Source: Ectocarpus siliculosus (lineage: Eukaryota > Sar > Phaeophyceae > Ectocarpales > Ectocarpaceae). Taken from it: a stretch of 64,000 nucleotides of DNA. The translations under genes and the position numbers were made by a program. This document shows, one piece after another, positions 206 through 49,092 of the stretch. The stretch covers positions 6,630 to 70,629 of the forward strand of contig FN648655.1 in assembly GCA_000310025.1 (NCBI GenBank), read 5' to 3'. Below the pieces are notes generated by a model, which saw nothing but the letters and a program-made list of their open reading frames with translations, had not been told where the DNA came from and did no database searches. Each line of letters begins with the position of its first letter. Positions within the stretch are counted from its first letter, which is position 1.

Positions 206-2690
206 GTGGGAGTATTGTTCCCTGACCCTGTGGGTGCCGATACCCTGTCGTGGCTAGAATTCGTGACACTGAGGACCATACGACATCCCCAAGGTTTTAC
301 TTACGTGACCCTGTGGGAGTCATGCAACGGTAGGGATAGCACATTATCGCCCAGAACCTTCGGTTATTCAGATGAATAACCAACCAATAATCTTCGAATA
401 TCAACTCCGATTTCAAATTTCAATCGTGTTTCATCTAGCCCATCGGATTACCTGTCACGTCATATTTCATGTTGTGTCAATGTCCGTTTCAGGCTGAGAT
501 ATGGAGCTTCTCACGTTTGAGACTCAGAAGGGATTCGTGCACCCCTACCGTTGCATGAGTCGTGGATAACGTAACACTGGCAAGATTCCCCGAAATACCG
601 TGTCGAATTGTGAAGACCGGCATGGTGTGTTCCTTCACCGACCCTGTGGGTATCGGTACCCTGTCAAGGCGACAATATGTGACCCTGTGGATTATCAATA
701 CCCCCAAGGTTTAACTTTTGTGACGCTACTGCGGATGACGTACACTGCCAAGGTGAACAAAACGACCCTGTGGATTTTTCAAGCCCCAAATGGTGTGTTG
801 CTTCACCGACCCTGCGGATATCTGCGGGTATCGACACCCTGTCACGGCGATAATTTGTAACCCTGTGGACTACACGGTATCCCCAAGGTCAGGTTTTCGT
901 GACCCTGCGGATGACGTAACACTGGCAAGGTGCGCACAATGACCCTCCTGTAGAACTTTCAAGCCCCACATGGTGTGTTCCTTCACGGACCCTGTGGGTA
1001 TGGGCACCCTGTCATGGGGAGAGCTTGTAAACCTGTGGACCACACGGTATTCCCAAGGTCGAGTTTTGGTGACCCTGCGGATGACGCAACCCTGGCAAGG
1101 TGCACCGAATGACCCTGTAGAACTTCAAGACACAGATGGTCTGTACCTTCGCCGATCTTGTGCGTATCGACACTCTGTCACGGCGATAATTTGAAACCCT
1201 GCGGGCCACACGATATCCCCAATGTTGGGTTTTCGTGACGCTGTAGATGACGCCACCCTGGCAAGGGTCACAGAATGACCCTGTAGAACCTTCAAACCCC
1301 ACATGGTGTGTTCCTTCACTGACCCTGTGGGTATCGGCACCCTGTCGTGCCGAGAAGTTGTAACCCTGTAGACCACACGGTATCCCCAAGGTTTTAATTA
1401 CGTGACCCTGTGGATAACGTAACACTGGCAAGGTTCACCGAATGACCCTGTGGAACTTTCAAGCCCCACATGGTGTGTTTTCTTCACCGACCCTGTGGAG
1501 ATCGGCACCCTGTCGTGGCGAGAGCTTGTAACCCTGAGGACCACACGATATCACCAAAGTTTAACTTTCGTGACGCTGCGGATGACGCCCCCCTGCCAAG
1601 GTTCATCGATCGAATGACCCTGTAGAACTTTCAAGCCCCGCAGGGTGTATTCCTTCGCCGACCCTGTGGGTACCGAAACCCTGTCATGGTGAGCACGTGG
1701 CACCCTGTGGACTATACGATATCCCCAAGGTCGGGTTTTGGTGACCCTGCGGATGTCCCCACCCTGGCAAGGTTCACCGAATGACCCTGTAGAATTTTCA
1801 ACCCCCACATACTGTACTACGTCGCCGACCCTGTGGGTACCGAAACCCTGTCATGGTGAGCACATGGTACCCTGTGGACCACACGATACCCCCAAGGTCG
1901 GGTTTTCGTGACACTGCGGATGAGGTAACCCTGGCAAGGTGAACCGAATGACCCTGTAGAACTTCCAAGACCTACATGGTGTGTTCCTTTACCGACCCTG
2001 CGGGTATCGGCACCCTGTCGTGGCGATAACTTGTAACCCTGTGGACCATACGATATCCCCAAGGTCGGGTTTTGGTGACCCTGCGGAGGACGTAACACTG
2101 GCAAGGTTCACCGAATGACCCTGTGGAACTTTCAAGCCTCACAGGGTGTGTTTCTTCGTCGACCCTGTGGAGATCGGCACCCTGTCATGGCGAGAGCTTG
2201 TAGCCCTGAGGACCACACGATATCACCAAAGTTTAACTTTCGTGACGCTGCGGATGACGCCCTCCTGGCAAGGTTCATCGAATGACCCTGTAGAACTTTC
2301 AAGCCCCACATACTGTATTACGTCGCCGACCCTGTGGGTACCGAAACCCTGTCATGGTGAGCACATGGTACCCTGTGGACCACACGATACCCCCAAGGTC
2401 AGGTTTTCGTGACACTGAGGATGAGGTAACCCTGGCAAGGTGAACCGAATGACCCTGTAGAACTTCCAAGACCTACATGGTGTGTTCTTTTACCGACCCT
2501 GCGGGTATCGGCACCCTGTCGTGGCGATAACTTGTAACCCTGTGGACCATACGATATCCCCAAGGTCGGGTTTTGGTGACCCTGCGGATGACGTAACCCT
2601 GGCAAGGTTCACCGAATGACCCTGTGGAACTTTCAAGCCTCACAGGGTGTGTTTCTTCGTCGACCCTGGGGTTACCCTAACCCTGTCATT
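206..2690. repeat. Tandem satellite, period about 167 bp
   Basis: About 14 imperfect copies of one unit follow each other. The recurring landmark (a CTTCACCGACCCTGTGGG-like word) falls near 632, 801, 981, 1147, 1314, 1482, 1653, 1820, 1987, 2154, 2321, 2487 and 2655, giving spacings of 166-171 bases with one of 180. A further partial copy lies at 206-316. Each unit contains several ACCCTGTGG-type words, so there is a shorter internal periodicity. Copies centred on 1820, 1987 and 2154 resemble those centred on 2321, 2487 and 2655 most closely, which suggests a recent three-unit (about 500-bp) duplication. The open frames through the array are by-products of a unit poor in stop codons and are not called as genes. 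A 245-bp MITE interrupts the left end. Confidence 0.9.
317..561. mobile_element. MITE inserted in the satellite, with 19-bp terminal inverted repeats
   Basis: The left end reads GAGTCATGCAACGGTAGGG and the right end is its inverted copy with one mismatch (317-335 and 543-561); weaker pairing continues inward for a few bases. The tetranucleotide GTGG occurs directly outside both ends (313-316 and 562-565). Removing the element and one GTGG gives a sequence that matches the intact satellite unit near 1402-1430, so the borders are well supported. No coding capacity is seen. It is a non-autonomous DNA transposon; the superfamily is not assignable from the ends alone. Confidence 0.85.
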
Positions 2691-5476: not shown

Positions 5477-5481
5477 GCAAT

Positions 5482-5778
5482 TTAAAGGAGGGGAAGCCGT
5501 GGGTGGTAGCTTGCTCCTAGAGATAGATGAAGGTAGGTTCTGTCGTTGACACGCTTGTCCACGATCACGTAGAGATGAGAAAGTTGCTTGTTATTGCTGA
5601 GAGACGATCAGCAAGGGTCTGAGGTGAAGTGGGGATCCAACTTCACCTCAGGGGGGTACGCAGACTAGACAAAATCCTAAGAGGGTAGGTGTCTGAAGGG
5701 TATACCTCCTGAGACCGACCCACATCCTATCAACAATAAGATGTACCCTATTTAAGCTAGCAGCCACACTCCTTAACA
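5482..5778 (-). repeat. 3' LTR of the Ty3 element
   Basis: The LTR is 297 bp. On the element's strand it begins TGTTAAGGAG and ends CTCCTTTAA, giving short imperfect inverted ends. It is identical to the other LTR at 19133-19429 except for one base near its element-strand start. GCAAT lies immediately outside at 5477-5481. Confidence 0.93.
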
Positions 5779-6789
5779 CTAGCCCACCCTGAATATCATA
5801 TATGCAGATTCTATACTCAAATCAATGCTCAACTCCTAAAAGCTACAACGAAGATTTTAGCTGACGATTGATGCTCATGAATCGAAGATATGACTCTTCA
5901 CAAAACATCCAAAAAGGAGGGTGAGTTGTAGAAACATCCCGAATCATCCCCCACACCATCATTGAGACGAAAGATGGATGCGAACGGCCACGAGACAACA
6001 CATCGACATCTCAATGACAAAGCTCCTATCAATGAAGGGATAAGGCCAAGAAAAATATGTAGTGCTGCACAGCACGCTATCCGCAACAGACGACGGCAAG
6101 AGAAATAAAGTCAAAACCTAAACGCCACACACCACTCTTTTACGCGCACCCGCGCGTATAACAATGGGAGGAATGAGGGCGACTACCCGAGAGAGCCCCA
6201 AAATACTGCAACAAAACTCAAAACCCAAGCAAATTTCCGAACGAATACGGCCTTTGATACTGGACGCGACGTAAAGGGGAAGATATCAACGCAACCAATC
6301 TAGGAAAGCGTCAAAGAAGGGCAGGAGAAATGAATGACAGGCGAACACACTGACAACAATTTCCAGCGTGTCAGAGAACTCAAACCGTATAGAGAGGCGG
6401 CCACGGCAAGACCTAATGAAAACCAAGAATGTAAAGCATGAATGATCAACGTCTGAGAAGCGATCTGACGAACTTGCCCTGTCTCGCTGGCAAAGCACAA
6501 CACAGGAAGGCTCAAATAACACAGAAAAATCGCAGAGATAGACACAACAACACAACGACTCAAGGGCTCGACGATGATGAAGGCGTCGCCGGCAGGTAGC
6601 GATGACGGAGACGAAGTGGAACGAAGTGTGGATGACGACGAATGTCCACGGGAGAAGACGACGCCACGGGATGGAAGCCCGAAGTAACAAGCCTAGATGA
6701 CACTTCGGCGACACGGTGGAGCTAAAAAAAAAAATGAGTTGGCGAAAGGCGAACCAAGGGAAACACGAGAAACTCGGTGTTTGCCTGGT

Positions 6790-6950
6790 CAGAGGCGAAC
6801 ATACCGACGAAACTTGGGGAACTCGTTGTTGAAGTGTTCAGAGGCAAACAACACCGACGAAACTTGGGGAACTCTTTTTCCAAGTGTTCAGAGGCAAAGA
6901 ACACCGACGAAACTTGGGGAACTCTTTTTCCAAGTGTTCAGAGGCAAACC
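6790..6950. repeat. 50-bp tandem repeat in the Ty3 3' region
   Basis: Three copies of a 50-bp unit (core GACGAAACTTGGGGAACTC at about 6806, 6856 and 6906) lie between the end of pol and the 3' LTR. An AAAC-type simple repeat follows at about 6976-7017. The whole stretch 5779-7053 is otherwise non-coding as far as I can see. Confidence 0.8.
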
Positions 6951-7053
6951 ACACGGAGAAAACAAGAAGGAAAAGAAAAAAAAACAAACAAACAAACGAA
7001 CAAACAAACAAACAAAATCCAAGATAGACCAGCTCGAACCTAAAACGGCGACG

Positions 7054-10000
7054 CTAGGAAGAGATATTGGGAACAGCCGACGGTAAGGAGTCAGTAATGG
7101 GAGGAGTGCGATCCCGGGCGTCGCCCAAAGGGCGCGAGCGATGTTTTTCTAAACACCACGATCCACAGACGGCGTCCAAGGCGGTGGAGTAGAGGTGCGC
7201 AGGCAGAGGGAGAACGCTGGGGCCCGGGTCATCCAGAAATCGAACGATGTACGAGCCGTCCTGATGAGCACCAATACGTCCGGTCCACCATAATCCGTCG
7301 CGGGCTTTGTACCACAGCCGCGCTCCTACTGGAAGGGGCGAAATGCTGAAGCGACGGAGCCAAGTCACGTGAAGCACAAGGTCAACCCCAGGAGGCAAAT
7401 AGCGTTCGCCACGATTCCGGGCGAGCTCCCGTTGTGCCGCGCGTGTCCGAGCCACTCGATACGTGCGGTTACCCTGCTTGCTTTGGCAGACCTCTCGAGA
7501 CCAGTACAAGAGGACGTGTCGACGGAATTGATCGAGGTCGGACTCCCGTTCCCAAGAAGGAGTAGTCAGGCCTAGCCAATGCGTCCGGTACAGGACAGCG
7601 AGAACACCGCTACGGCCCCGCACCAATTGGTGTCCCGAAATGTAGTCGACCTCGAGGCGCCCGACAGGCACCGACACATCATCTGCGGTGACGTGAAACG
7701 GTGGACATTTATCGCCGAAAGAGTGCAGGACATAACGCGAAAGCTCAGCGGGTAGAGATTGAGGCAGGTCGTCCGTCTCGTATGGATTGCGACAGGGCTT
7801 GCAACGAAGGACAGATACGCGACATCGAGCAGCTGGGCCGGAAAGATCCGAAGGCAGGTCCAGGTAGAGGAGTTTACGCGCCAACGGACTTCCATCTGGG
7901 GTGGCGTTGGCCGAAGCGGGACCCACCGCAAGAACTTTGTAAGGCCCCGTCCAGGAAAGCGCGAATTTGGCCTTGAGCACCTGTTGATCCGTGTTGATCC
8001 GTGTCCTTCCGCACACCCTGTCGAATTGTAGCAGCCGTGTTGTAGACCCAAGCCCACCCGCCAACAGTAAATTGCGGGAGCTTGTGGATGGCGTCCAGCA
8101 GGGATGGATTACGGCGTTCGACTCGCGAGATCTTCAGGGCGTTGTACTCACGGACCAGGTCGTAGGCCCGGCGCTGACGATCGACAGCCAAGTTGCAGTA
8201 CTCGAGTTGGTCACGGGTTAAGCTTTGATGACCACCTACCGTTGGATGATCGAAGACCGAAAGCGGAAGCCGCGGAATGCGTCCGATATGGATCTCGTTC
8301 GGCGCCAATCCAGTCGACTGGTTCACGGAATTGTTGTAGGCAAATTCGACGTGCGGGAGATGTACGTCCCAATCGTTTTGCTGTTCGTTGACGACTACCG
8401 CAAGCATCTGAGCCATCGTGTGATTGACGCGTTCCGTGCCGCCGTTGGTTTGCGGGTGGTAGGAGCTGGTGGTGAATTTCTTGATTTTCATCACCTCGTA
8501 GATCGCCATGGAGAGCTTCGAGCAGAAATGCAGTCCGTTGTCCGACAATAACGTAGTCGGACATCCCCACTTGGTCATGTACTGGTTGACGAAGATGTGA
8601 GCCGTCCCTTTCGCCGTAAATTCCGCCGCTGTAACCGCGAACATGTCGGCTCTCCGGCTGAAACGGTCTGTGAACAACAAAATGTAGGAGTTGCCCTTGG
8701 CAGTCACGGGCAGGGGTCCGAAGAAGTCGACGCCGACGACCGTACCAGGCCCCTGTGGCAATGGCATAGCGATGACGGGCCACCGAGCGGTTTGACGCGA
8801 AGTCTTGCGAGCTTGACACACCAAACACGCTCGAAGCCACCAACGCACGGAACGATCCAGACCAATCCACCAGTAAAAACGCTCAAGCAGACGTTGTGTA
8901 CGATGAACACCGAGATGGAAGGACGCGGCGGTATGGCAGGCATGAAGGACCCACGGACGCATCAGCATGGGCACGTAGACACGGGGCACACCAGTATCCG
9001 GTAGACGAGTGGTCCTGCCGCCAGAGCGCCCGATCGGCGATGGCGCCGGTTTATGTACGAGGAGGGTGACGTTCTCATCGGTCGTGTGCAGCCTGGTTTT
9101 CGCCGCCAACGCAAGGACATCGTCCAACCGAGGGGAGCGGAGCGGGGCACTAAGGGTGAACAAGTCAGAAGGGGGGGGGGAGGGAGAGCCACGAGACAGA
9201 AAGCGCATAGCCACCACGCATTCGCTCTCCCGCTGTTGTTCCCTAGCCCAGTCCACAGTGCCGAAGCTCTGAACGCAAGCTCGCAAATGTGAGGGGTCCA
9301 AGTCAGTCGGCTCCAACCCAGAGACAAGCGATCCCACGGAAGAGGCTGGAGAACGAGGGGCCTCAACGAGTGGTGAAGTTGCAGACCGCGGTGTCACCTC
9401 AGGAGGAGGCATTGGGCGGGGCGAAGTCCCAGGCGAAACCTGGATAGAGGGCAAAACCGAGGATGCAGCGCGCGCCGATGCCGGCGAAGGCACCTGTGGC
9501 GCAGAGGCAGTCGACGAAAACGCCGACGTTGGCGTCGCAGATGACGGCAGGGGACGCGTGCCGGTCCGGATGGTCTTGTTTGTCGAGCGGGACCTGCTAG
9601 GACGACGGGCAGTGGACGATGCCCGAGGGACGATGGTAGCCCGCGGCTGGCGTCCGAAATAGGTGGGACCGGTGACGGTGCCTCCAGAAGCAGCGGTGGT
9701 CTTGGCCCGAGTTCGTGAAGAAATGAGCGGTCCCCGCTCCGGAAGCGAAGACAGGACGTGCACATATCTATTCGCCAAAGACGCGGCCGGAGACATTCCG
9801 CGGGACGTAGCCGGAGCCAAACAGGAAACAGGCACCGGAGACGCGAAAACATGTGAGACCACGAAGACTCCCGAAGACCTCCGAGAATCTTGATAATCAA
9901 TCGGTGAGTCCGATCGAACATCCAGCAGGCGCGGGTGATGACGGCGGAAATCCCCAAAATCGGATGGCTGTAGCGCTGGGGGTGAAAAGACACCCGCCGA

Positions 10001-13000
10001 GCAGGGAGGGCGGAGCCCACCCAAACCGACCTCCGGCGTAGACGACGAGTGATAGTTGAGTCCACAAGCCCGAATGAGGAAGACACCAGCGTGATCGACA
10101 CCATCAATGCAATCGGGGCCGGTTGTGTCCGTGTCTTGTGCTGGTAAAGGCAGCCGCGAAAGGAAATCCGCGTTGCCGTTTGCCGAACCTTTCCGATATT
10201 TCAGGGTGTAGGTGAAGTTGGACAGGAATTCGAGCCATCGTTGTACCCTGGCGTTGTGTTCTCCAACCTTTCCAATGCTCTCTAAGGCTTTGTGATCTGA
10301 ATAGATGATGAACTTGGTTGACCACAAATAGCCCCGAAGACGCTTAATGGCCCAAACAATGCCACCAGCTTCCAGATCCAGAACAGTCCAGTTCTGCTCC
10401 GCCGAAAGAGTAGCGCGGCTGATGTACACAATGGGTCTCACCGAGCCATCGAGTTGTTCTTGTTCCAGGGAGGCTCCAAAGCCGTCAATGCACGCGTCGG
10501 AGCACAAACGGAGAGGACGGCTGTTGTCCTCGACCGCAGCCCAATCCGGGAAGACCAAAATCGGGGGACGCGCGAGTTCGCTCAACAACGTTTTGACAAC
10601 CTTGACCATGCCCGGGGTGTACTTGAAGGGGACGCCTTGTTTGAGAAGAGAGTTGAGAGGCCGCACCTTGGTGGCGAGATTCTGAAGGAATTTCCGGTAG
10701 TAGCTGAGACCACCGAGGAGGCTCCTAAGCTGCTTAACATTCGTCGGCGGCGGCATGTGCGTGAGCGCCCTAACCTTGACGCCATCAGGGCTAACCCCAG
10801 CCGGGGAGATGGTGTGACCGAGGAAATTGGCGTGGGTGGCGCCGACACGAGCCTTCCCTGGAGACAGCTTGAGGTTGTACTGGCGCAGCCGTTTGAAAAA
10901 CTCGATCATGTTGAGCACGTGTCCCAGAGGTTCCTCATCGAAACAGATAACATCATCCAGATAGACAAGCACACGCTCCAGACCGTGCACCACTCTGTTG
11001 ATGACCTTGACGAACCAAGACGGGCTGGCGTTGGCTCCTTGCGGCATCCGAAGCCATTCGAACAACTGCGTGGGAGTGCAAAAGGCGGTGAGCGGGACAG
11101 TGTCTTCGTCACAAACGATCTGGTGGAAGGCCGAATTGAGATCGAAGATGGAGAACACTTTCCCGGTGTAGAGAGAATCCAAGATACCGTCCACCCGAGG
11201 GAGAGGTTGTCCATCCAAGTCCACCAGGGCGTTGAGTCGTTTGGAGTTGACGGTGATGCGAACCGATCCGTCCTTCTTGGGGATGACGACCAGGGGAGAA
11301 GCCCAGGGAGAAGTGGAATGCTGAATGAGCCCTGCCGCCAAATACTGGTCCAAGACGGCATCCACTTTCTTCTGCATTAACGGGTTAATACGATACGGGC
11401 GTGATGCGACGGGCTTCGTCCCTGCGGGGACAGAAAGAGTGAATGGCATGACGGTGCAGGAACCAAAATCGGTTTTCGAAGTAGAGAACACGTCGGAATA
11501 CTCAACAAGGGCGTCGGCCAAACGATCAATAGCCCCCGGTGTCCATCCCGGGTTGTGTAGATCGAAAGCGATGTCGTGCATATGTGCAGGCAGCCTAGTC
11601 CACAATCGCAGAAAACTGGAGCGCTGGGCCTCGGAGAAGCGGTCAAGCAGTTCTTGTGGAGGCGGCTTCGGAGGAGGCGGGGCGGAGGCTGGGTCCGGAG
11701 AGCGGCGAGTCCCGGACTTGGGGCCAACGGCGTTGACCCGATGCGGTGATGTAGAGGACGGGGGGGCGGTGGGAGTCGAAGATGGAGCCGCCTTCAGGGT
11801 TTCTACCGGTACTCGTAATAGCGGTGCAGCAGACACGCCAATAACGTCGCCCGGCTCCAATTCGGCACAACCTGCAAGGGGAATACGCTGAAGACCATTG
11901 GAAACAAATGCATCGGGGGACGAAAGTGCACCCACTTCAGGTCGGAACGATACCAGATATTCGCCGATCAGCGCAGGCATGCCCGAAGAACGGACGAGGT
12001 CCACCTCAACAAGGGCCGGCTCCGGCCCCAAGGAAATGCCCGAGCTCCCTGCATATTTGAGGTGAAACGAAGAGGCAGGAGCGTCGTCGTGCGTAGCGTA
12101 AACACACGCGCCAGCGGTGAAACGTGGAGAGAGCGTGAGCTCGCCCATAACCCGGCCGTCCGGTCCAGGGTGGGGGAGGGTGGTGAACACTCGAGAGTTG
12201 AACCGCATCCAGCTATCGCGACCCAGAAGCACGGCGTGCCCCATGGCGGCATCTGGAACAACGCAGGCCCAGACCGCCAACGAAGCGGTAGCTCGAGCTC
12301 CATGAAGAAAATTAACGGTGAGACGAACTGACTGAGTGGTCACAAGGGCGGGTCCATCACCAAACCCACCCCAACGACGAGAGGGCGAAACACGAACGCT
12401 GCCAGCTGTCAAGGCTCCAGCAGCTATCATGGCGGTGACCACGGAGTCGGACACAAAAGACGCAGGAGATCCAGAGTCCAGCAGCGCCACTCGCGCCAGT
12501 TGAGAAGTGGCTGTAGGTCCTCCATGCAGCAGGACCCGGGTGGTGTAAGAGTCCGAGTCCAACAGGAGCGTGCCGCCGACCAGATCGGGCCCGTGTTCCA
12601 GAAGAGGAGGTTGGTCTGCACAAGCGGAGGTCGAGGCCACCAGATGAACACCAGGAGCATGGTCCCCCGGAGCGTCCAAATGGAGACAGGCTGGGTCTTC
12701 ACCCCGGTCCTCCCGTGACGACGAACCGGCCGCGGTAGCAACCTCGTGGATGCGTCTACGGCCATGTGGAGGAGGCTGCGAAATGGGAGGTGCGGGAGAA
12801 GTGGAGGCGGGGAGAGCTTCGCCAGACAGGGGATGATCACGCAAAAGGCGCCGAACTTCCATCAAAGCTTTTCCCAACAAGTTTTTACCGCTAGACGCCC
12901 ACTTGGATGAAACGCTAGCCTCCGGAAAGCATGCAGACATGCCGATACCCCAAACACGATCGAAGGGGCTGGCTTCCGCAAGGAGGCGGGTACCCGTCTC

Positions 13001-14146
13001 CAGTAGATGTTGTTTCATGTCGCGGTTTTGAGCGAATTTGGCATACGACCCCGTAAGCACGATCTCTTCTCGACGACGCTCCCATTCAGCATAGTCAAAA
13101 GGACGGACGTTACGACCCAAGTACTTGTGTGTCTTAGGATCTGGTGCAGCCATGATTTTTTCATACGACGTCATATCCCCAAACAACTTCGCTTTTTCAG
13201 ACATCATAAATTGCTCACCACATGAATAACGTACCCCCAGTACGTCAAAAGCCGAGGGAGTCCATTGCGAGAACACAGACGGAGGTTTCCAGAAGAGGAG
13301 GACGTCATCCGAAGCGTACTCGCATTTGTCATCAAACGGCGGAGCCGGTGCAGGGCGCAGAGGCAAAGAGCGGGCACCAGGCACGGGCGGGGGTGGGTCA
13401 AGCGGACGGGTCCTCATCTCCGACGGGGAGGACCCAGAAAGCGAGGGAGGAGCGGGCGAAGTCGCTCCGGTCCATGATCCGGAGGGCGGCCTACGGGCGG
13501 CGGCTCCGGCGAGGTCAATGTTAGCAGAGGCCATTCGGCTATTAGAGACCTGTTCGTTAAGAGAAGTCTTTCCTGCGGCAGACGGATATGTGTGAATGGA
13601 CGCAGGGCGCTCTGGACTACTCCCCCGTGACAAAGGAGCCGAACCTTCCACAGAACGGTGGGCACTACCATCCGATCCCGATGGCAGTGGTGCAGTCAGC
13701 ACGTTGTGGGCAGCAGAGGAAGACGCATTCGTATCAGGTGCTGCCACACGGGGGCAGCGGACGGTCGAAGACAACGAAAGCTGCGAAAGAGAAGGAGAAT
13801 CGACGGGGTCCCCGACGAGTGTAGAAGAAGGCTCGTGTGCTATCCGAGAAGAGGCCCGGCTGACAATACCAGGAGAGTCTTGGCGAACAGTAGTAGACGA
13901 GGTTCTTGTTCCTTCTGTAACCCGAGACGGCGAGGTGAGCAGGGGTGAACCACTCGACGTCTTACCTCCCTGTCGCCCACACCACAAAGGTTGTGCCGGA
14001 GTGGGTTTGTCATGTCCAATACCAGCAGACGATGAGGTGGGTGACGAGGAGGCGGGCCGAGAAACTAGATGTGATTTGGGGGCGTGGGGAGTATCCAAAG
14101 AAGTAGGCTGTACACGAACATCCTGAGAGACTCCAAAAGGGTGCAC
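7054..14146 (-). CDS. pol: Ty3 pol region: NADAR, protease, RT, RNase H, integrase, chromodomain
   Basis: In protein order: a serine/proline-rich leader of about 270 residues; a NADAR-type domain (residues about 280-437, 12.84-13.31 kb); an aspartic protease with LLDSGSP (near residue 557); reverse transcriptase (about 905-1105) with YLDD at 1062-1065; RNase H (about 1211-1335); and a low-complexity spacer of about 280 residues. Integrase follows (about 1735-1960) with HLGVH and CLVC forming the zinc-binding HHCC site and D1807, D1869 and E1905 as the DDE triad. A chromodomain lies at about 7495-7665 and a Tudor-like segment (WYKARDGLWW, VRFLDD) at about 7225-7326. The polyprotein would copy and integrate the element; the chromodomain is known in chromoviruses to guide integration towards marked chromatin. 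The region looks largely intact. The leader, NADAR domain and spacer make it much longer than usual for the family. Confidence 0.9.
12836..13309 (-). other. NADAR (YbiA/DUF1768-like) domain inside the retroelement pol
   Basis: Pol residues about 280-437 show the family's landmarks in order: LLFWKPPSVFSQW, the GEQFMMSEKAKLFGD block, DPKTHKYLGRNVRPFD, W.RRREEIVLTGSYAKFAQN, LLETGTRLLAEASPFDRVWGIG, and a final NLLGKALMEVRRLL. The length of about 155 residues matches a complete domain. NADAR proteins are N-glycosidases; bacterial YbiA acts on riboflavin-pathway intermediates, and other members remove ADP-ribose from modified guanine. What it does here is unknown. Possible roles include removing a host ADP-ribosyl mark from element nucleic acid, or nucleotide salvage. 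It is flanked by serine/proline-rich linkers, as an acquired module would be. Confidence 0.85.
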
Positions 14147-14194
14147 GGTGGTTGCTAGTGACGGTAGTACCGGCTGAACTCCGCCATCGGCATG

Positions 14195-15649
14195 TCATTT
14201 CTTACCCTTCCAGCCCCTCTTAGCCGAAGTGGAAGTCTCCGATGAGGATTCTGTGTGCGAGGACTGTTTCATGTCCGATGTGTCAGATGAACGGCGGGCG
14301 CGTCCCGAGGAGTGAGCACGGGGTGGGTTGCGTCCTGTAGGTCGTCTATACGAGGTCATGCGCTTTTTCCACCGACTCCAAAGTGTGGGATCTTTTTCCA
14401 TGCAGAGCTTGATATCATTGTTAAGCAGGCCTGTGGCGTTAATGAACCCACGAGTACAAGATTTGAAGGAGTGGTCTTCCCCTAAGCAGTTGAGGCACTT
14501 GCCCTTGTACAGCCGAAGCGCGTTGCGGCGGTCTTCAGCCGAGACCAAGGGGGTGAACAATGGCGGATCATTCTTGGTTAGAGCCATCTCACTAGCGACG
14601 TTGTATACCTCTGGAAAGTGTCCTTGCAGCGGCCAGTCGCTGTAGTGCAACAGAAAAGGGTCTCGATCATCATAAGGTAGAGGGTCAACACTCATCACCG
14701 CAGCCGAAGAACCTGGACTCCACGAAGGGGTCACCGACGACCGCAACGCCGAAGAAGCTACAGCACGCGAAACAGCAGACGAACTCCGAGCATTCGTGGA
14801 AGACACCGAAAAAAAATCGTCACCATGTACCGCCGGCGTGTGCGCGAATGCCCGCTTGTCCAACACATCCCACATATCGTCCAAACACGAAGCATGTCGC
14901 CCAAAAGGGGCTTCCATGGAGAGCTGCTCATCCTTGTACACCTGTCCAGACACTACGGGAAACTGCTTCAACATGGAGTCTCGAACAGCTATCTGCATTT
15001 GTGCATCCGAAGGCTTGAACGCGTGATGAGAAACCATGACAGTCATGGCCAGAGCCTTATAGCGACGAATGTATTCTCCGTACGTCTCGCCGGTGGACAC
15101 GCCAAAACTACGAAGGCGATCGATCCCCGAGCTCTTGTCTTGAGTGTCCCAGGCGGCCGCCAATTTCTGGATAAAGAACGCGTACGTCGAGGGCCCGGCC
15201 GGTTCCTTGCGCAGATGGTTTTCTACCTGTTGGAAAGTGGCATCAAGAAATTCCAGCGTGGCACGGTTGGTGGTTTGACCTTCAACGACAGCAGCACGAA
15301 CACGTTTGCGCAACAACGGAAGCCATCCTGCGACCCAGGTGGAGGAAGCGAAAGTCTGCTTGCGTTTGACGTCGCTTTTGTTGAGGATCTCGGTGACCAC
15401 GCCCTTGCAGCTAGACGCGAAACGAGCAAATTCATCAGGATCAGAACCAAGGGGCAAGCGTGTGACACTATCAAGTTGTTCCGGCTTCAGCTTGTCCATC
15501 TTGTCTTGAATGCGGATGGTGTCGGCCTCCGCTGCAGCGGCGTCCGCAGCGTCCAAAGCCTCCTGCCTCGTCCTCGCCCCCGTGGAAGACAAAGGCAAGC
15601 TAGCATCATCCTGAGGCAACGGCGATGTCGCGTTGGCCGGTGACGCCAT
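14195..15649 (-). CDS. gag: Ty3 gag with zinc knuckle
   Basis: This 484-residue protein starts MASPANATSPLPQ. The central region (about residues 60-250) is helical, with tryptophan/leucine-rich stretches such as WVAGWLPLLRKRV and FLDATFQQVENHL, typical of a retrotransposon capsid. Near residue 390 it carries CLNCLGEDHSFKSC, which fits the CX2CX4HX4C knuckle that binds RNA. The tail is basic and serine-rich and ends in GWKGKK. It lies immediately upstream of pol and downstream of the extra ORF, all on the minus strand. It would form the particle that packages element RNA. Confidence 0.88.
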   Translation of the reverse strand: MASPANATSPLPQDDASLPLSSTGARTRQEALDAADAAAAEADTIRIQDKMDKLKPEQLDSVTRLPLGSDPDEFARFASSCKGVVTEILNKSDVKRKQTFASSTWVAGWLPLLRKRVRAAVVEGQTTNRATLEFLDATFQQVENHLRKEPAGPSTYAFFIQKLAAAWDTQDKSSGIDRLRSFGVSTGETYGEYIRRYKALAMTVMVSHHAFKPSDAQMQIAVRDSMLKQFPVVSGQVYKDEQLSMEAPFGRHASCLDDMWDVLDKRAFAHTPAVHGDDFFSVSSTNARSSSAVSRAVASSALRSSVTPSWSPGSSAAVMSVDPLPYDDRDPFLLHYSDWPLQGHFPEVYNVASEMALTKNDPPLFTPLVSAEDRRNALRLYKGKCLNCLGEDHSFKSCTRGFINATGLLNNDIKLCMEKDPTLWSRWKKRMTSYRRPTGRNPPRAHSSGRARRSSDTSDMKQSSHTESSSETSTSAKRGWKGKK

Positions 15650-15678
15650 GACGTGGCCGGTCGCCGGGCGAGGATCGA

Positions 15679-18600
15679 TCAGGATAGACGTACGCGGGAG
15701 GGGGGGGGCACCACCAAAGGCTGTTGTAGCAGAGCTGGGGCGGTCGACGCTGATGACACCACCAAAGGCTGTTGCGGCAGAGCTGGGGCGGCCGGCGCTG
15801 ATGACGATGACACTGCCGTGGCCCTGGCAGCTGCCTCATCGTGAACCTCGTACCCTGAACGAACTCCCGAGGAACTCGAAGCGTGGTCTTGCAATGGTGC
15901 CAAATGCGCCCGTGACGAAAAGGGTGGGGCAGAAGGTGGCATGCTAGGGGCGTTCGAGGGCACAGAAGGTGGTACATTCGAGTCGGCAGCAGCATCCACA
16001 ACTTGGCCAGGCGTTTGCGCGCGCAGGAGAGTGAGCACTTGTTCCAACAGCATTTCAGTACGGGAAGCCGAAGTCGAGGCGTGTGATGCAGCATTGCGTG
16101 GTGAACCAACCCGTTCGTCCAAAAGCAAGGAAGATGTGGGCTGATCTACCACGGTGTGTGTAGGGGCATGGCTTTTAACCGCGGCGGAATGTTCACGAAG
16201 TTGCATGTTGGCAAGTTTGAACGCCAAAGTAGACACGGGCGGCGGTCCTACATCAGCGGGGGGGAGCAAAACCGGTGGCGAAGAACAGAGTGAACCATCT
16301 TCTGAGGCAGTCTTACGTTCCCCCAACAGCCCAGAACTACGAAAATCACACCGATCATACTGCACTTGCCTGCGACCCCGACCTGACTTCCGTCGCCCTT
16401 TGCCCCCTCGACCGCTGTCCGAGCTGGTCGCCCTGCTGTTGCCCCCACTCCTCGTCGGGCTCCGGCTGCGGCTACGCCTACGCGAAGGCGTGTTGCTCCC
16501 GCGGCGGTCGCTGCTCCGGCTGCGACCACGCCGAGACGAAGGTGCGTGACGTGGCTGGCGGTCGGTGCTCCGGCTCCGGCTCCGGCTCTCGCGGTGTCGA
16601 CGCTTGGACGAAGATTCCGCGTACCCCCGCCCGCCATCTTCAACACCCGGCCCTCGCGAAGTGCGCTCGGCCGTCCCGCTCTTGGCCGTGGGGGCTTGAT
16701 CACCCCAACGGCTCCTCCGGCTGGTGGAGGCAGGAGCCGCCGACAGACTGTAGTCCTTGGTCCCTCCGGAACCATGCGCACGGCTTGCAGAATCCTGCTG
16801 TGGGAGCTGCAGATCATGCTGAAAATCGTCGTTGGTTGCAGTACGAGCTAGCGGCAACCGAATTCCCCCATTGTGCACCACCACCGCGGTTCCCTGGGGA
16901 CCCTCGGTGAAGGAAGCCCTACGGAGAGCAGACACTAACCGAAACACACTCTGTCGTAAGGACGGTTCTAGCTGGTCGAGGAACGGACTCGATACAAGAT
17001 GTGCAAAACCAAGGTCTGTATAAGAGTCAGGACAGCGGTCACGCACGATGTGTTGGAGGCCAGCCCACGCAAAAAGGGCACTAGTTCGGTCAGCATCATG
17101 GAAGGTGATCACATCTGTGGGCGTGGAAAGGGGGCGGGACAGGAACGCTGTGTCTTCTGCGTGAAACCTGTACTCCTCGGCTTCGTCGTCTGACGCGCCG
17201 TCGGCATCCCCGGCCGGCCCACCCAGCGTCACAGAAAACTGGGGAACAGCAGCCACTTCCGGTGCCGCCTGGGGCGTGGGAGGGGGCACGACACGACGAC
17301 GGGCGGGTCGCGAAAGCAAAGTTGAAGCTTGCGGCCGGCGCCCGAGGTCCTCCAGCCGTGATCGGAGCGCCCCTTGCTTCGCCCTAGCAGCCCGGACATA
17401 CTCCTCGCGCGCCGCTAGTTCCGCTTTCTTCTGTGCAGCCGCCCGAGCAGCCTCGCGCTCCTCCTCCTGCTTCCTCGCAGCCTCCGCCAGAGCAGCCTCA
17501 CGCTCCTCCTCCTGCCTCCTCGCAGCTTCCGCCAGAGCAGCCTCACGCTCCTTCGCCTGCTTCCTCGCAGCCTCCGCCAGAGCAGCCTGACGCTCCTCCT
17601 CCTGCTTCCTCGCATCATCCGCCAGAGCAGCCTCACGCTCCTCCAGCAGCTTCCGCTCTTCCGCCGCCGCTACCTCGCTAGCCAGACCGCGGTACCACAT
17701 CTCGGTCAATTCTTGAAAGGCGGCGAACTCATCTTGCGACAAGTGCATCACCATGTCTTCCTGCGGGAGCGAGAAAGGGCGAGCGCAAATGGGGGAACCA
17801 GGAGACAAACGAGCTGCCCTGACCACGTCGCGCAGGGAGATCCGTCCAGCGGTGTACGCTTGTTCCAGGTCCGCCGGATCCGCCGTGGCGATGTTGTACC
17901 TCAGGTCATCAGCTGCGGACGCGCCTGGAGTGGACTCGCTCTCGTCGCCCGTCCCGGCCCCTGCAAGCAGCTCCGCGGTGGACGGCTCGCCCTCGGCCTC
18001 GTAATCGAGGATTTCCTCATTGCCGTCCATCAGTTCCACATATCCGCTGGACATGGTGTTCTCTTTTTTCAAAAAGACAGGGCCAGAGGAAGGGCAGCTA
18101 CTATCGATTTTTACAAGTGCAGAACGGCCAGCAACAGTAGATGTGTCACCCCCAACCGCTGTTGCGACAGCAGAACCGATTGCAGCGGAAACAGTAAAGC
18201 GGGGCGTAATCGCGGTAGAAGCAAACCGAGGTCCATGCGAAAAACGGAGATACCCACAGGACAGCATACGCCCGGCGATAAAAGCTTGATGCACACGAGG
18301 TTGAAGCGGATCCAACCAAGCAGAAAAGGCGTCCAAAAGCACACCATGCCACGCATACACAGCAGTGGAAGCTAGCACAAAAGGACCGGTATTAAATGGG
18401 GACACGAGATTGTCCGACCAAAACACACGCAGAGCAGCACGGCGTTCCTCCGCAACGGGTGCCGAAGTGCGAGCAAAGACCGCTGTGGGTTTGCGCTGTT
18501 GAAAGGTTTCCAATTCGAATGCCTTGAGGGTGAATGATGCTCCAAAAAAAATTTCCATGTGATTGCGAAAAATGGAGGGAAGGCTGGTGGGGCGGCTGAC

Positions 18601-18966
18601 ACCCAATTTGTGTGCACACAATGCTCTCCACGTCGAAACAAGCGGAGTCAAATCGGAGAGCACCACAGGGAAATCCGCGGACATCGGCCGGTACGCCGGC
18701 ATGAATGCAGTAGAAGTGGTAGCGGACGCGGGAAGCATGCTATCATCTCGAGTCCCGCTACACAAAGACAGCAACTCCGGTTGCTTCATGCAAAGCGTGT
18801 CCGCCACCGAAATAACTTCATGGACCGCCGATGCAGACAAAATAGCTTGGGAGGGGCGGCGAGCGTAGGAAAAATCACCTACAACATCGCGATGACCGCC
18901 GAGACGCGTATCCTTCGCAAGGTCCCAGTCCCGCGGGCGCTTAGCGAAAGCATCGCAAGCCAGCAT
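15679..18966 (-). CDS. Extra 1095-residue ORF upstream of gag in the Ty3 element
   Basis: I do not recognise a family. The protein has an N-terminal region of about 330 residues without low complexity, then an acidic segment (GNEEILDYEAEGEP). A long coiled coil follows, built from five near-identical 16-residue repeats of the type EREAALAEAARKQEEE (about 17.4-17.65 kb). After that come an arginine/serine-dipeptide region (SRSRSRSTDR and similar, about 16.4-16.6 kb) resembling RS domains of splicing factors, and a proline/serine/alanine-rich tail. It is on the same strand as gag and pol, and ends about 30 bases before the gag start. A long extra ORF in this position is unusual for Ty3 elements. 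It may contribute to assembly or RNA binding, or may have been captured from the host; its function is unknown. Confidence 0.75.
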   Translation of the reverse strand: MLACDAFAKRPRDWDLAKDTRLGGHRDVVGDFSYARRPSQAILSASAVHEVISVADTLCMKQPELLSLCSGTRDDSMLPASATTSTAFMPAYRPMSADFPVVLSDLTPLVSTWRALCAHKLGVSRPTSLPSIFRNHMEIFFGASFTLKAFELETFQQRKPTAVFARTSAPVAEERRAALRVFWSDNLVSPFNTGPFVLASTAVYAWHGVLLDAFSAWLDPLQPRVHQAFIAGRMLSCGYLRFSHGPRFASTAITPRFTVSAAIGSAVATAVGGDTSTVAGRSALVKIDSSCPSSGPVFLKKENTMSSGYVELMDGNEEILDYEAEGEPSTAELLAGAGTGDESESTPGASAADDLRYNIATADPADLEQAYTAGRISLRDVVRAARLSPGSPICARPFSLPQEDMVMHLSQDEFAAFQELTEMWYRGLASEVAAAEERKLLEEREAALADDARKQEEERQAALAEAARKQAKEREAALAEAARRQEEEREAALAEAARKQEEEREAARAAAQKKAELAAREEYVRAARAKQGALRSRLEDLGRRPQASTLLSRPARRRVVPPPTPQAAPEVAAVPQFSVTLGGPAGDADGASDDEAEEYRFHAEDTAFLSRPLSTPTDVITFHDADRTSALFAWAGLQHIVRDRCPDSYTDLGFAHLVSSPFLDQLEPSLRQSVFRLVSALRRASFTEGPQGTAVVVHNGGIRLPLARTATNDDFQHDLQLPQQDSASRAHGSGGTKDYSLSAAPASTSRRSRWGDQAPTAKSGTAERTSRGPGVEDGGRGYAESSSKRRHRESRSRSRSTDRQPRHAPSSRRGRSRSSDRRGSNTPSRRRSRSRSPTRSGGNSRATSSDSGRGGKGRRKSGRGRRQVQYDRCDFRSSGLLGERKTASEDGSLCSSPPVLLPPADVGPPPVSTLAFKLANMQLREHSAAVKSHAPTHTVVDQPTSSLLLDERVGSPRNAASHASTSASRTEMLLEQVLTLLRAQTPGQVVDAAADSNVPPSVPSNAPSMPPSAPPFSSRAHLAPLQDHASSSSGVRSGYEVHDEAAARATAVSSSSAPAAPALPQQPLVVSSASTAPALLQQPLVVPPPSRVRLS

Positions 18967-19132
18967 CCTCTACAAGAGAAGAAGCAGAGAAGGCTAAGTC
19001 TAGAATCTCGTGGGTGGTGAGACCAAATAACAAACAACCCCGTGATTGTGAAGAAAGCGTGACAACAACACACAGCAGTGTGGAGGCCGCGTCCAGCACC
19101 CGCTTACCGTGTAATGCCAGCTGACGCCAAGT

Positions 19133-19429
19133 TTAAAGGAGGGGAAGCCGTGGGTGGTAGCTTGCTCCTAGAGATAGATGAAGGTAGGTTCTGTCGTTGA
19201 CACGCTTGTCCACGATCACGTAGAGATGAGAAAGTTGCTTGTTATTGCTGAGAGACGATCAGCAAGGGTCTGAGGTGAAGTGGGGATCCAACTTCACCTC
19301 AGGGGGGTACGCAGACTAGACAAAATCCTAAGAGGGTAGGTGTCTGAAGGGTATACCTCCTGAGACCGACCCACATCCTATCAACAATAAGATGTACCCT
19401 ATTTAAGCTAGCTGCCACACTCCTTAACA
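19133..19429 (-). repeat. 5' LTR of the Ty3 element
   Basis: This is the 297-bp partner of the 5482-5778 LTR, with one difference. It should hold the element's promoter. The outer target duplication GCAAT is at 19430-19434. The candidate primer-binding site lies immediately inside, separated from the LTR by about three bases. Confidence 0.93.
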
Positions 19430-19434
19430 GCAAT

Positions 19435-24212: not shown

Positions 24213-24548
24213 TGATCGATAATTCGGGTGGCTCAGTTCTTTGTGTTGGGAGTGTAGAGCAGCTGGGCCATGACGGGCCGTGGTAGGGTAGGGACGTATA
24301 GGAAAACGTGTTGTAAAACGTATAGTGGTCATCGGGGGCGTGCTTCAGCTCGTCAATCGGTCACGGCATGGAGTCACGGGTCACGCTCATCACGCTCAAA
24401 GTACCTAACGAATGTCCATGAATCTCCACCATTGCATCACACTCCCAAGGAAAATATGAAGAAACTTCTTGTTCCTCCGCACTCGTCACTACTGTACATC
24501 AATAAGTAATATATCACCCACCATGCTATGCTACGAGTATATCTAACT
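24213..24548 (-). repeat. 3' LTR of the copia element
   Basis: It starts TGATCGATAATTCGGG on the plus strand and ends in ATATCTAACTA. The same termini occur in the 331-bp partner at 32846-33176 and, more distantly, in the 352-bp LTRs of the 46-kb element. The inner end is not followed by the expected polypurine tract (see 24549-26308). Confidence 0.85.
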
Positions 24549-32845: not shown

Positions 32846-33176
32846 TGATCGATAATTCGGGTGGCTCAGTTGTTTGTTTTGGGAGTGTAGAGCAGCTGGG
32901 CCATGACGGGCCGTGGTAGGGTAGGGACGTATAGGAAAACGTCTTGTAAAACGTATAGTGGTCATCGGGGGCGTGCTTCAGCTCGTCAATCGGTCACGGC
33001 ATGGAGTCACGGGTCACGCTCATGACGCTCAAAGTACCTAACGAATGTCCATGAATCTCCACCATTGCATCACACTCCCAAGGAAAATATGAAGAAACTT
33101 CCTGTTCCTCCGCACTCGTCACTACATCAATACGTAAGATATCACCTACCATGCTATGCTACGAGTATATCTAATA
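32846..33176 (-). repeat. 5' LTR of the copia element
   Basis: This is the 331-bp LTR. Immediately inside it the sequence ACGACGTGTCATACGCTAGCG (32825-32845) is shared with the same position of the 46-kb element (48720-48740), so it should contain the primer-binding site. Target duplication AGATC follows at 33177-33181. Confidence 0.88.
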
Positions 33177-46088: not shown

Positions 46089-46440
46089 TGATCGATAATT
46101 CGGGTGGCTCGGTTCTTTGTGCTTGGAGCTCAAAGCGGGTGGCTCATGGCGGAGCGTGGATGGGTAGGAAACGTGTTGAAAACGTAACGAAAAGGATTGG
46201 AAAGTATTGTATTCATCGGGGGCGTGCCAGTGCTCGTCAAACCTTCACGGTATCTGGGCACGCCTTCACTCTTTGTCACTCAACGAATCTCTCTGAATCT
46301 CCACCAAATACCTCTCGCAACCAAGGAATATATGTAGAAAGTTCCTATCCCTCCGCATCTCATCACTGTTACTTTCGTACGTACGTACCGAACATCTCAA
46401 CCGTCATACTATGCTACGAGTACCCCCAATATATCTAATA
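46089..46440 (-). repeat. 3' LTR of the copia derivative
   Basis: It starts TGATCGATAATTCGGG and ends ATATATCTAATA in plus-strand reading, followed directly by GCCCCCCTACTCG (polypurine tract on the element strand). It includes CGTACGTACGTAC near 46378-46390. Confidence 0.9.
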
Positions 46441-47911: not shown

Positions 47912-48208
47912 TCAGTTTTTGTGGGTGACTGGCAACCTTACGTGGCGTAGCAGCCATATAACCTCGCAGTTTTTGTGGGTGACTGGCAACCTTACGTGGC
48001 GTAGCAGCCATATAACCTCGCAGTTTTGTGGATGACTGGCAACCTTACGTGGCGTAGCAGCCATACAACCTCGCAGTTTTTGTGGGTGACTGGCAACCTT
48101 ACGTGGCGTAGCAGCCATATAACCTCGCAGTTTTGTGGATGACTGGCAACCTTACGTGGCGTAGCAGCCATACAACCTCGCAGTTTTTGTGGGTGACTGG
48201 CAACCTTA
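47912..48208. repeat. 53/54-bp tandem repeat, six units
   Basis: GACTGGCAACC occurs at about 47927, 47981, 48034, 48088, 48141 and 48195, spacings 54, 53, 54, 53, 54. Two unit types alternate: one has CAGTTTTTGTGGGTGACTGG, the other CAGTTTTGTGGATGACTGG. The order is A A B A B A, so it is a short higher-order array with a 107-bp dimer. It sits inside the copia derivative. Confidence 0.85.
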
Positions 48209-48740: not shown

Positions 48741-49092
48741 TGATCGATAATTCGGGTGGCTCGGTTCTTTGTGCTTGGAGCTCAAAGCGGGTGGCTCATG
48801 GCGGAGCGTGGATGGGTAGGAAACGTGTTGAAAACGTAACGAAAAGGATTGGAAAGTATTGTATTCATCGGGGGCGTGCCAGTGCTCGTCAAACCTTCAC
48901 GGTATCTGGGCACGCCTTCACTCTTTGTCACTCAACGAATCTCTCTGAATCTCCACCAAATACCTCTCGCAACCAAGGAATATATGTAGAAAGTTCCTAT
49001 CCCTCCGCATCTCATCACTGTTACTTTCGTACGTACGTACCGAACATCTCAACCGTCATACTATGCTACGAGTACCCCCAATATATCTAATA
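48741..49092 (-). repeat. 5' LTR of the copia derivative
   Basis: This is identical by eye to 46089-46440. TAGTA follows at 49093-49097. Confidence 0.9.

What the first reader, a model, noticed from the sequence alone, without database searches (positions are those of the whole stretch)
12836..13309. A NADAR (YbiA-like) N-glycosidase domain fused into the pol protein of a Ty3 retrotransposon
The domain looks complete and keeps the family's conserved blocks (GEQFMM, LGRNV, AKFAQN, ASPFDRVWGIG, NLLGKALMEVR). It lies between low-complexity linkers just before the protease in a very young element, so it is likely still under use. NADAR enzymes handle ADP-ribose or pyrimidine-ribose N-glycosidic bonds. 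An element carrying one may counter a host ADP-ribosylation defence or salvage nucleotides. I know of no standard Ty3 architecture with this domain, but I cannot search for precedents.
Basis: partly seen in the sequence, partly recalled or inferred. Interest (0 to 1): 0.88.

Follow-up and report, generated by a model that had tools for sequence, protein, structure and literature searches.

The report
Algal retrotransposon with a NADAR enzyme
A jumping element of a brown alga carries, inside its replication polyprotein, an intact-looking enzyme domain of a family that strips ADP-ribose tags off RNA and DNA; the combination was already published in 2025 for Ectocarpus, and what is added here is evidence that the domain is conserved and kept by selection, how it is likely made, and a possible source in the host genome.

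Summary
A complete NADAR domain (Pfam E 1.9e-45) lies in the pol frame of a Ty3/Gypsy element (5481-19429, minus strand; 298-bp LTRs, one difference). It is no one-off: at least 130 of 148 related RT matches in this genome have it upstream. It is under purifying selection (omega about 0.19 and 0.08 in two comparisons), weaker than RT (0.02-0.03). Active-site residues are kept in 33 of 33 open copies sampled; the model matches ADP-ribose-bound NADAR 8bau. The architecture is already in print: PMC12477816 (2025) reports it for one Ectocarpus Gypsy lineage. Additions: gag and pol share one frame across a UGA-C stop, suggesting read-through; a host NADAR gene with introns has relatives that share an N-terminal block with the element domains, so host capture rivals the published bacterial source. 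This copy's pol frame is broken, its gag probably too. Best mechanism, inferred only: guanine de-ADP-ribosylation of the element's RNA or cDNA in the particle.

The parts
5481..19429 (-). Ty3/Gypsy LTR retrotransposon, 13,949 bp
   Evidence: LTR pair; RT-RNaseH-integrase order
19132..19429 (-). 5' LTR, 298 bp, TGTTAAGG...CCTTTAAA
   Evidence: 1 difference from the other LTR
5481..5778 (-). 3' LTR, 298 bp
19430..19433 (-). target-site duplication TTGC, 5' side
5477..5480 (-). target-site duplication TTGC, 3' side
15679..18966 (-). ORF1, 1095 aa, no Pfam match; probably the N-terminal part of a long Gag
   Evidence: gag frame of 1439-1774 aa in 8 of 15 matches at 98% identity or more, 546 aa here. 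That the extra length is ORF1 is inferred from size; the search with ORF1 itself did not complete
14195..15649 (-). gag ORF, 484 aa, CCHC zinc knuckle at 14456-14497
   Evidence: 91 matches listed in the genome
14195..14197 (-). UGA stop followed by C between gag and pol, same frame on both sides
7874..14194 (-). pol frame, stop to stop, 2106 aa (first start codon GTG at 14146)
13316..13336 (-). FDxxxEY block just before the NADAR domain, shared with brown-algal standalone NADAR proteins
12839..13294 (-). NADAR domain; E311, K318, R345, W355, E391, D396, W399 of pol match ADP-ribose-contacting or catalytic residues of known NADARs
12455..12484 (-). aspartic protease motif LLDSGSPASF
   Evidence: that this motif marks the protease is recalled; no Pfam protease match
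10808..11284 (-). reverse transcriptase
   Evidence: PF00078 E=1e-24
10214..10528 (-). RNase H
   Evidence: PF17917 E=1.8e-27
8453..8974 (-). integrase, H2C2 zinc finger and core
   Evidence: PF17921 E=1.1e-13; PF00665 E=3.6e-6, 27.6 bits, below its cut-off of 32.6
7054..8133 (-). integrase C-terminal region and tail in a second frame: pol of this copy is broken by a frameshift
   Evidence: by comparison with P0001 and P0003; no Pfam match

Best explanation
Shown by sequence: a Ty3/Gypsy lineage of brown algae carries a complete NADAR ADP-ribosylhydrolase-type domain at the N-terminus of Pol, inherited together with RT, kept by purifying selection, with its active site intact. Suggested by sequence: Pol, and so the domain, is made by reading through a UGA-C stop at the end of gag. 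Inferred: the domain is packaged with RT in the particle and cleaves ADP-ribose from guanine bases of the element's RNA or cDNA, undoing host (or microbial toxin) nucleic-acid ADP-ribosylation that would block reverse transcription. The domain and a host NADAR gene with introns probably share an origin, perhaps by capture of the host gene's mRNA.
For: Presence across the related copies at near-fixed spacing from RT (about 1330, 1375, 1408 and 1435 nt by family, with a few exceptions from 446 to 2478). omega well below 1 (nine pairs 0.175-0.215, smallest 2*delta-lnL 40.8; two pairs 0.075-0.091). NADAR and RT distances agree (14 copies, Mantel r 0.96, 0 of 2000 permutations). Active-site E, K and E in 33 of 33 open copies sampled. 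Fold match to ADP-ribose-bound NADAR. In print, NADARs remove guanine-linked ADP-ribose from DNA (PMC11543638, passages and section 12) and RNA (PMC11833690, passages). UGA-C ends gag in 17 of 17 loci whose gag match reaches the end (21 examined). The fold also occurs in polyproteins of RNA viruses and in giant viruses and phages, so several kinds of parasite carry it. Host PARP-like pieces exist (4 weak matches).
Against: No enzymatic, expression or particle evidence. No host guanine ADP-ribosyltransferase was looked for beyond the PARP family; the four PARP matches are short (E 4.5e-6 to 4.3e-4) and PARPs need not modify guanine. Selection is about 3-10 times weaker than on RT by omega, and NADAR dS in the A/A' comparison (0.78-0.95) is half that of RT (1.75-1.85), which I cannot explain. 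E. coli YbiA is also assigned to riboflavin biosynthesis as an N-glycosidase (PMC7922944 passages), so the substrate may be a small metabolite. The stretch after the UGA shows no unusual RNA fold (z 0.13), and 7 of 17 loci have gag and NADAR in different frames, read here as decay. Five of nine inspected related RT loci showed no NADAR in about 2.2 kb upstream. The copies sampled lean towards intact ones (the 20 best NADAR matches, then mostly long frames).
Confidence: 0.4

Rival explanations
1. Published suggestion: the domain processes the RNA intermediate of transposition in some other way (PMC12477816).
For: Stated as a hypothesis in that paper; NADARs also occur in RNA-virus polyproteins.
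Against: The passages read on NADAR enzymes describe removal of ADP-ribose from bases, no RNA cleavage.
Confidence: 0.15
2. Metabolite role: the domain hydrolyses small N-glycosides or NAD/ADP-ribose derivatives, as YbiA is held to do in riboflavin biosynthesis, sparing or cleaning nucleotide pools during reverse transcription.
For: YbiA-type glutamate kept at E391; model matches YbiA 2b3w with TM 0.76.
Against: A domain fixed in Gag-Pol is placed to act on the particle's own nucleic acid; a soluble enzyme would suit a metabolite role better (inference).
Confidence: 0.2
3. Binding, not catalysis: the domain recognises ADP-ribose on nucleic acid or chromatin to anchor the pre-integration complex or the RNA.
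For: Ligand-contacting residues kept; the paper also gives Gypsy-12_Ec32 a C-terminal chromodomain.
Against: The catalytic E, K and E are all kept in 33 of 33 open copies sampled, which pure binding would not require.
Confidence: 0.12
4. Passenger: a captured fragment without function.
For: Evolves faster than RT; within recent copies omega can be near or above 1 on few changes (C-C pairs); some copies have no detectable or a frame-shifted NADAR.
Against: omega 0.08-0.2 over long comparisons with rejection of 1; catalytic residues kept in every open copy sampled.
Confidence: 0.03
5. On origin only: transfer straight from bacteria into the element, as the 2025 paper proposes, with no role for the host gene. 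This is compatible with any of the functions above.
For: The paper's blastp hits outside Ectocarpus were almost exclusively bacterial. Here named bacterial relatives are 50% (P0027) and 41% (P0095) identical and unnamed ones reach 55%, not far below the algal standalone proteins (51-60%). The deep tree is unresolved.
Against: Brown-algal standalone NADARs share the FDxxxEY block with the element domains: it is in 7 of 63 proteins with readable upstream sequence, all element proteins or these standalone ones. Two element proteins (P0002, P0004) and one unnamed protein (P0020) have only part of it, which weakens this.
Confidence: 0.35

Closest known systems
Gypsy-12_Ec32 and its lineage, Ectocarpus sp. 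7 (PMC12477816, Genome Biol 2025)
   [quoted passage not shown] brown alga; the paper says all families of one lineage have it.
   Different: Consensus not available to me, so family identity not tested. The paper's main text has no occurrence of readthrough, read-through, stop codon or frameshift; figures and supplements not seen.
Tx1 LINE ORF1 proteins of Crassostrea gigas with NADAR (as reported in PMC12477816)
   Same: A retroelement carrying a YbiA-type NADAR.
   Different: Non-LTR element, other protein, divergent domain; seen only as text.
Phytophthora nicotianae NADAR, PDB 8bau; E. coli YbiA, PDB 2b3w
   Same: Fold (TM 0.83, 0.76); for 8bau also the ADP-ribose-contacting residues.
   Different: Standalone proteins; 31% and 24% identity; Y84 and D86 of 8bau are Phe and Tyr here (alignment).
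Brown-algal standalone NADAR proteins (P0010, P0011, P0015; gene L056 in this genome)
   Same: 51-60% identity over the domain, shared FDxxxEY block.
   Different: Host gene with four coding blocks and GT-AG at the three junctions, an N-terminal Cys/His segment, and no pol match in the 2.4 kb held beyond the NADAR parts.
NADARs of RNA viruses, giant viruses and phages (BFVD)
   Same: Same fold, some inside replicase polyproteins.
   Different: Unrelated replication systems; 13-39% identity among the 50 matches at E<=0.001.

Membership tests
NADAR / YbiA (PF08719) | Profile match over the curated cut-off, whole domain | tested here: met
   155.5 bits against 35.1, positions 2-163 of 163
NADAR / YbiA (PF08719) | YbiA fold | tested here: met
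   8bau E 3e-12, 2b3w E 1.4e-7, nothing else at E<=0.001
NADAR / YbiA (PF08719) | Catalytic Glu and Lys plus the YbiA-type Glu (P. nicotianae E43, K50, E125) | tested here: met
   E311, K318, E391 of pol; 33 of 33 own open copies sampled
NADAR / YbiA (PF08719) | Hydrolysis of an ADP-ribose or ribose N-glycosidic bond | not testable with these tools
   needs purified protein
Ty3/Gypsy (Metaviridae) | Order protease, RT, RNase H, integrase | tested here: met
   RT, RNase H, integrase by Pfam; protease by motif only
Ty3/Gypsy (Metaviridae) | LTRs with target-site duplication | tested here: met
   298-bp LTRs, TTGC on both sides
Ty3/Gypsy (Metaviridae) | gag with zinc knuckle | tested here: met
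   CLNCLGEDHSFKSC; no Pfam gag match
Published Ectocarpus NADAR Gypsy lineage (Gypsy-12_Ec32) | NADAR at the N-terminus of Pol | tested here: met
   this element; at least 130 of 148 related RT matches; 18 of 21 public relatives with room for it
Published Ectocarpus NADAR Gypsy lineage (Gypsy-12_Ec32) | Chromodomain after integrase | tested here: inconclusive
   No Pfam match in the second-frame tail 7057-8133; a WYKARDGLWW segment looks reader-like by eye only
Published Ectocarpus NADAR Gypsy lineage (Gypsy-12_Ec32) | Sequence match to the published consensus | not testable with these tools

The most novel reading that the evidence does not exclude
A retrotransposon took a host ADP-ribosylhydrolase gene and turned it into a particle-borne counter-defence that cleans guanine-linked ADP-ribose from its RNA or cDNA, which would imply a nucleic-acid ADP-ribosylation defence against retroelements in brown algae.
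Probability: 0.2. Interest if true: 0.85.

Novelty: already known. Interest (0 to 1): 0.45.

Why it matters
The physiological role of NADAR enzymes outside DarT operons is described as unclear (PMC11125620 passages). A domain kept by selection inside a retroelement's polyprotein, beside similar domains in RNA viruses, giant viruses and phages, points to ADP-ribosylation of nucleic acid as a hazard that genetic parasites may meet repeatedly, and gives a defined protein on which to test it. The host-gene link makes the domain's origin testable.

Tried and rejected
One-off insertion: rejected. Neutral passenger: disfavoured. Glu in the LMEVR block as the catalytic residue: my first mapping, rejected when it was kept in only 6 of 33 copies and section 12 of PMC11543638 placed the functional Glu at E125, that is E391 here. 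Frameshift between gag and pol as the expression mode: not favoured, since 10 of 17 loci keep one frame across the UGA. RNA structure after the UGA: nothing unusual. Host genes at C15:1559185 and C13:2439670: these proved to be decayed element copies with protease remains. Origin by tree: unresolved (element NADARs as one group, support 57/0; with the algal standalone proteins, 69/74).

Rows left out before counts: nad 9, mid 19 and rt 10 loci for stops, Ns or coverage under 0.85; L033 and L034 left out of NADAR omega because their reading frame is locally shifted, L042 out of RT as another lineage. One search used 19 chosen representatives (17 present for NADAR, 16 for RT, 14 for the protease part). 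Pairs are not independent. Synonymous change is saturated between families, so only comparisons within a family group are quoted. The loci fetched were not random: L009-L028 are the 20 best NADAR profile matches, L029-L038 and L049-L053 were picked for long frames, odd scores or subfamily A'.

The script held 149 of the 150 RT rows (I left out C478:23925); with that row, which has NADAR 1435 nt upstream, the count is 123 of 150. 148 of the 150 RT rows are 55% or more identical, and the 123 are all among them. Seven further rows have NADAR or 61 (130 of 148); five inspected rows do not; one lies too close to a contig start; twelve were not inspected.

A first form of this report said that near-identical copies have a gag frame of 1514-1608 aa; on recount that holds for some only (8 of 15 at 1439-1774 aa), so the broken gag is now given as probable.
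Full report
WHAT IS THERE. The pol frame at 7874-14194 (minus strand) contains a complete NADAR domain, pol residues 285-436, window 12839-13294 (Pfam E 1.9e-45; coordinates). It lies between a low-complexity N-terminal stretch and the aspartic protease motif (aa 555), followed by RT, RNase H and integrase in Ty3/Gypsy order. The element runs from 5481 to 19429, with 298-bp LTRs that differ at one position and a TTGC duplication on both sides (BLAST pair). The genome, 189 Mb in 492 contigs, is unnamed; best element proteins of Ectocarpus sp. CCAP 1310/34 are 93% (NADAR part) and 95-96% (RT to RNase H) identical, so it is probably Ectocarpus or a close brown alga.

THIS COPY. The LTRs say recent, but the coding frames are not whole. 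The pol frame ends early, and its expected C-terminus is found in a second frame at 7054-8133 (against P0001 and P0003). The gag frame is 546 aa; of 15 gag matches at 98% identity or more, 8 have frames of 1439-1774 aa and 7, this one included, 546-1080 aa. ORF1 (15679-18966) is in a different frame from gag here. A split long Gag is therefore probable but not shown; the search with ORF1 did not complete.

A FAMILY TRAIT. The NADAR profile gave 150 scored matches out of 230 candidates. The RT search gave 150 scored of 487. 123 of 150 RT matches have a NADAR match upstream on the same strand (with one row added by hand; see Tried and rejected); with seven more it is at least 130 of the 148 that are 55% or more identical. 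Spacing is near constant within each family, with a few exceptions (446 to 2478 nt). The two RT matches at 44% have none listed, and the one inspected (L042) has none in 3.3 kb. Of nine inspected close relatives without a listed NADAR, four have it in shifted frames (L039, L040, L046, L047); five (L041, L043, L044, L045, L048) do not within about 2.2 kb, and in these the pol upstream of RT is itself partial or interrupted. One search listed 120 of 209 public relatives; of these and P0001-P0004 I examined the top 38. Of 21 with RT 53% or more identical that reach 150 aa or more beyond the protease part, 18 carry NADAR, one of them partial; P0129, P0149 and P0151 do not. P0135, P0155 and P0160 carry it too but fell outside that count. 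P0158 at 43% RT identity does not.

SELECTION. Codon-model estimates (summarised; family letters are mine): between subfamilies A and A', NADAR omega 0.175-0.215 (9 pairs, dS 0.78-0.95), the protease part 0.063-0.072 (6 pairs), RT 0.017-0.024 (6 pairs, dS 1.75-1.85). In family D the values are 0.075-0.091, 0.066-0.073 and 0.023-0.028 (2 pairs). omega=1 is rejected in all of these (2*delta-lnL 40.8 or more), though pairs share copies. Very recent pairs give omega from 0.09 to above 1 on a few changes, as expected after insertion. NADAR and RT distances agree (14 copies, Mantel r 0.96, 0 of 2000). So the domain is kept, about as firmly as the protease part in one comparison and more loosely in the other, in both more loosely than RT. 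The lower NADAR dS in A/A' is unexplained.

ACTIVE SITE. Aligned to P. nicotianae NADAR (8bau; chain numbers are two above the paper's, my reading) and read with section 12 of PMC11543638, E43, K50, K75, R79, W89, R93, E125, D130 and W133 are the same in the window protein; Y84 and D86 are Phe and Tyr. E43, K50, E125, D130 and W133 equivalents are kept in 33 of 33 open copies; K75, R79, W89 and R93 equivalents in 31 of 33, the two exceptions being, for R79 and W89, the locally frame-shifted L033 and L034. Among 18 public relatives two (P0002, P0141) have Asp for E43 and two do not reach it. The model (pLDDT 96.2) matches only 8bau and YbiA at E<=0.001 in the PDB.

EXPRESSION. Gag and pol are in one frame, separated by UGA followed by C. 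In 17 of 17 loci, of 21 examined, whose gag match reaches its end, the gag stop is UGA-C, with three different codons before it (AAA, AAC, GGA); in 10 of 17 it is in frame with NADAR, and open up to NADAR in 9 of these. This suggests read-through, so NADAR would be made only as Gag-Pol and at the dose of RT. UGA-C as a leaky context is recalled. No structure signal was found downstream. The 2025 paper's main text has no hit for readthrough, read-through, stop codon or frameshift.

ORIGIN. The genome holds a separate NADAR gene at C24:2125206-2127066 (L056) whose coding parts match P0010 in four blocks, with GT and AG at fitting places for three introns (splicing itself not shown). P0010, P0011 and P0015 come from Ectocarpus and Scytosiphon, P0012 from a EukProt entry of unknown species. 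These four and the element domains share FDxxxEY just before the domain: 18 of 19 own copies with readable upstream sequence (the 19th has EH), and 7 of 63 public proteins with 12 or more upstream residues (of 127), all elements or these standalone proteins. P0002, P0004 (elements) and P0020 (unnamed) have partial versions. Trees do not decide. The published view is transfer from bacteria.

PRIOR ART. PMC12477816 (section 5 part 1 and passages read) reports that one of four Ectocarpus Gypsy lineages carries a YbiA-family NADAR at the N-terminus of Pol, suggests bacterial acquisition, and notes Tx1 LINE ORF1 proteins of oyster. The 20, 20, 8 and 10 papers listed hold no other whose title or abstract start reports a NADAR retroelement; the rest of the matching papers were not listed. 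Enzymology: PMC11543638 (passages, section 12), PMC11125620 (passages), PMC11833690 (passages). PMC7922944 (passages) describes a 391-aa stress-related Ectocarpus protein with this domain; I could not tell whether it is the L056 gene. PMC6338049, on accessory domains in retrotransposons, has no occurrence of NADAR.

JUDGEMENT. The finding is real and interesting but not new as an architecture. The points I add are selection, active site, UGA-C junction and host-gene link. The biochemical role is inference.

Noticed in passing
G000:C24:2124900-2127300 (L056): Host NADAR gene with four coding blocks and an N-terminal Cys/His segment (CKLPGCSRPC...HDYCGVTHG), close to P0010.
   Followed up: partly
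window 46089-46440 and 48741-49092: Two 352-bp direct repeats, 100% identical, 2.3 kb apart: looks like a very recent short LTR element, with a 54-bp tandem array inside (47913-48208).
   Followed up: no
window 24213-24546 and 32846-33174: Pair of repeats 96% identical around frames with Copia-type gag (below cut-off), Pol_BBD and integrase matches: probably a Ty1/Copia element.
   Followed up: no
window 564-2689: Array of about 167-bp units, 11 copies, 79% alike.
   Followed up: no
L057, L058, L059 (C4, C36, C24): NADAR fragments about 39-40% identical to P0010, with stops and shifts; whether they were part of elements was not tested (loci of 1.0-1.3 kb).
   Followed up: partly
BFVD hits: NADAR fold inside polyproteins of a nido-like virus, yellow head and gill-associated viruses and Ingleside virus, and in many giant viruses and phages.
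   Followed up: no
window 17381-17668: 45-bp tandem repeats inside ORF1 coding an Ala/Glu-rich coiled-coil-like stretch.
   Followed up: no
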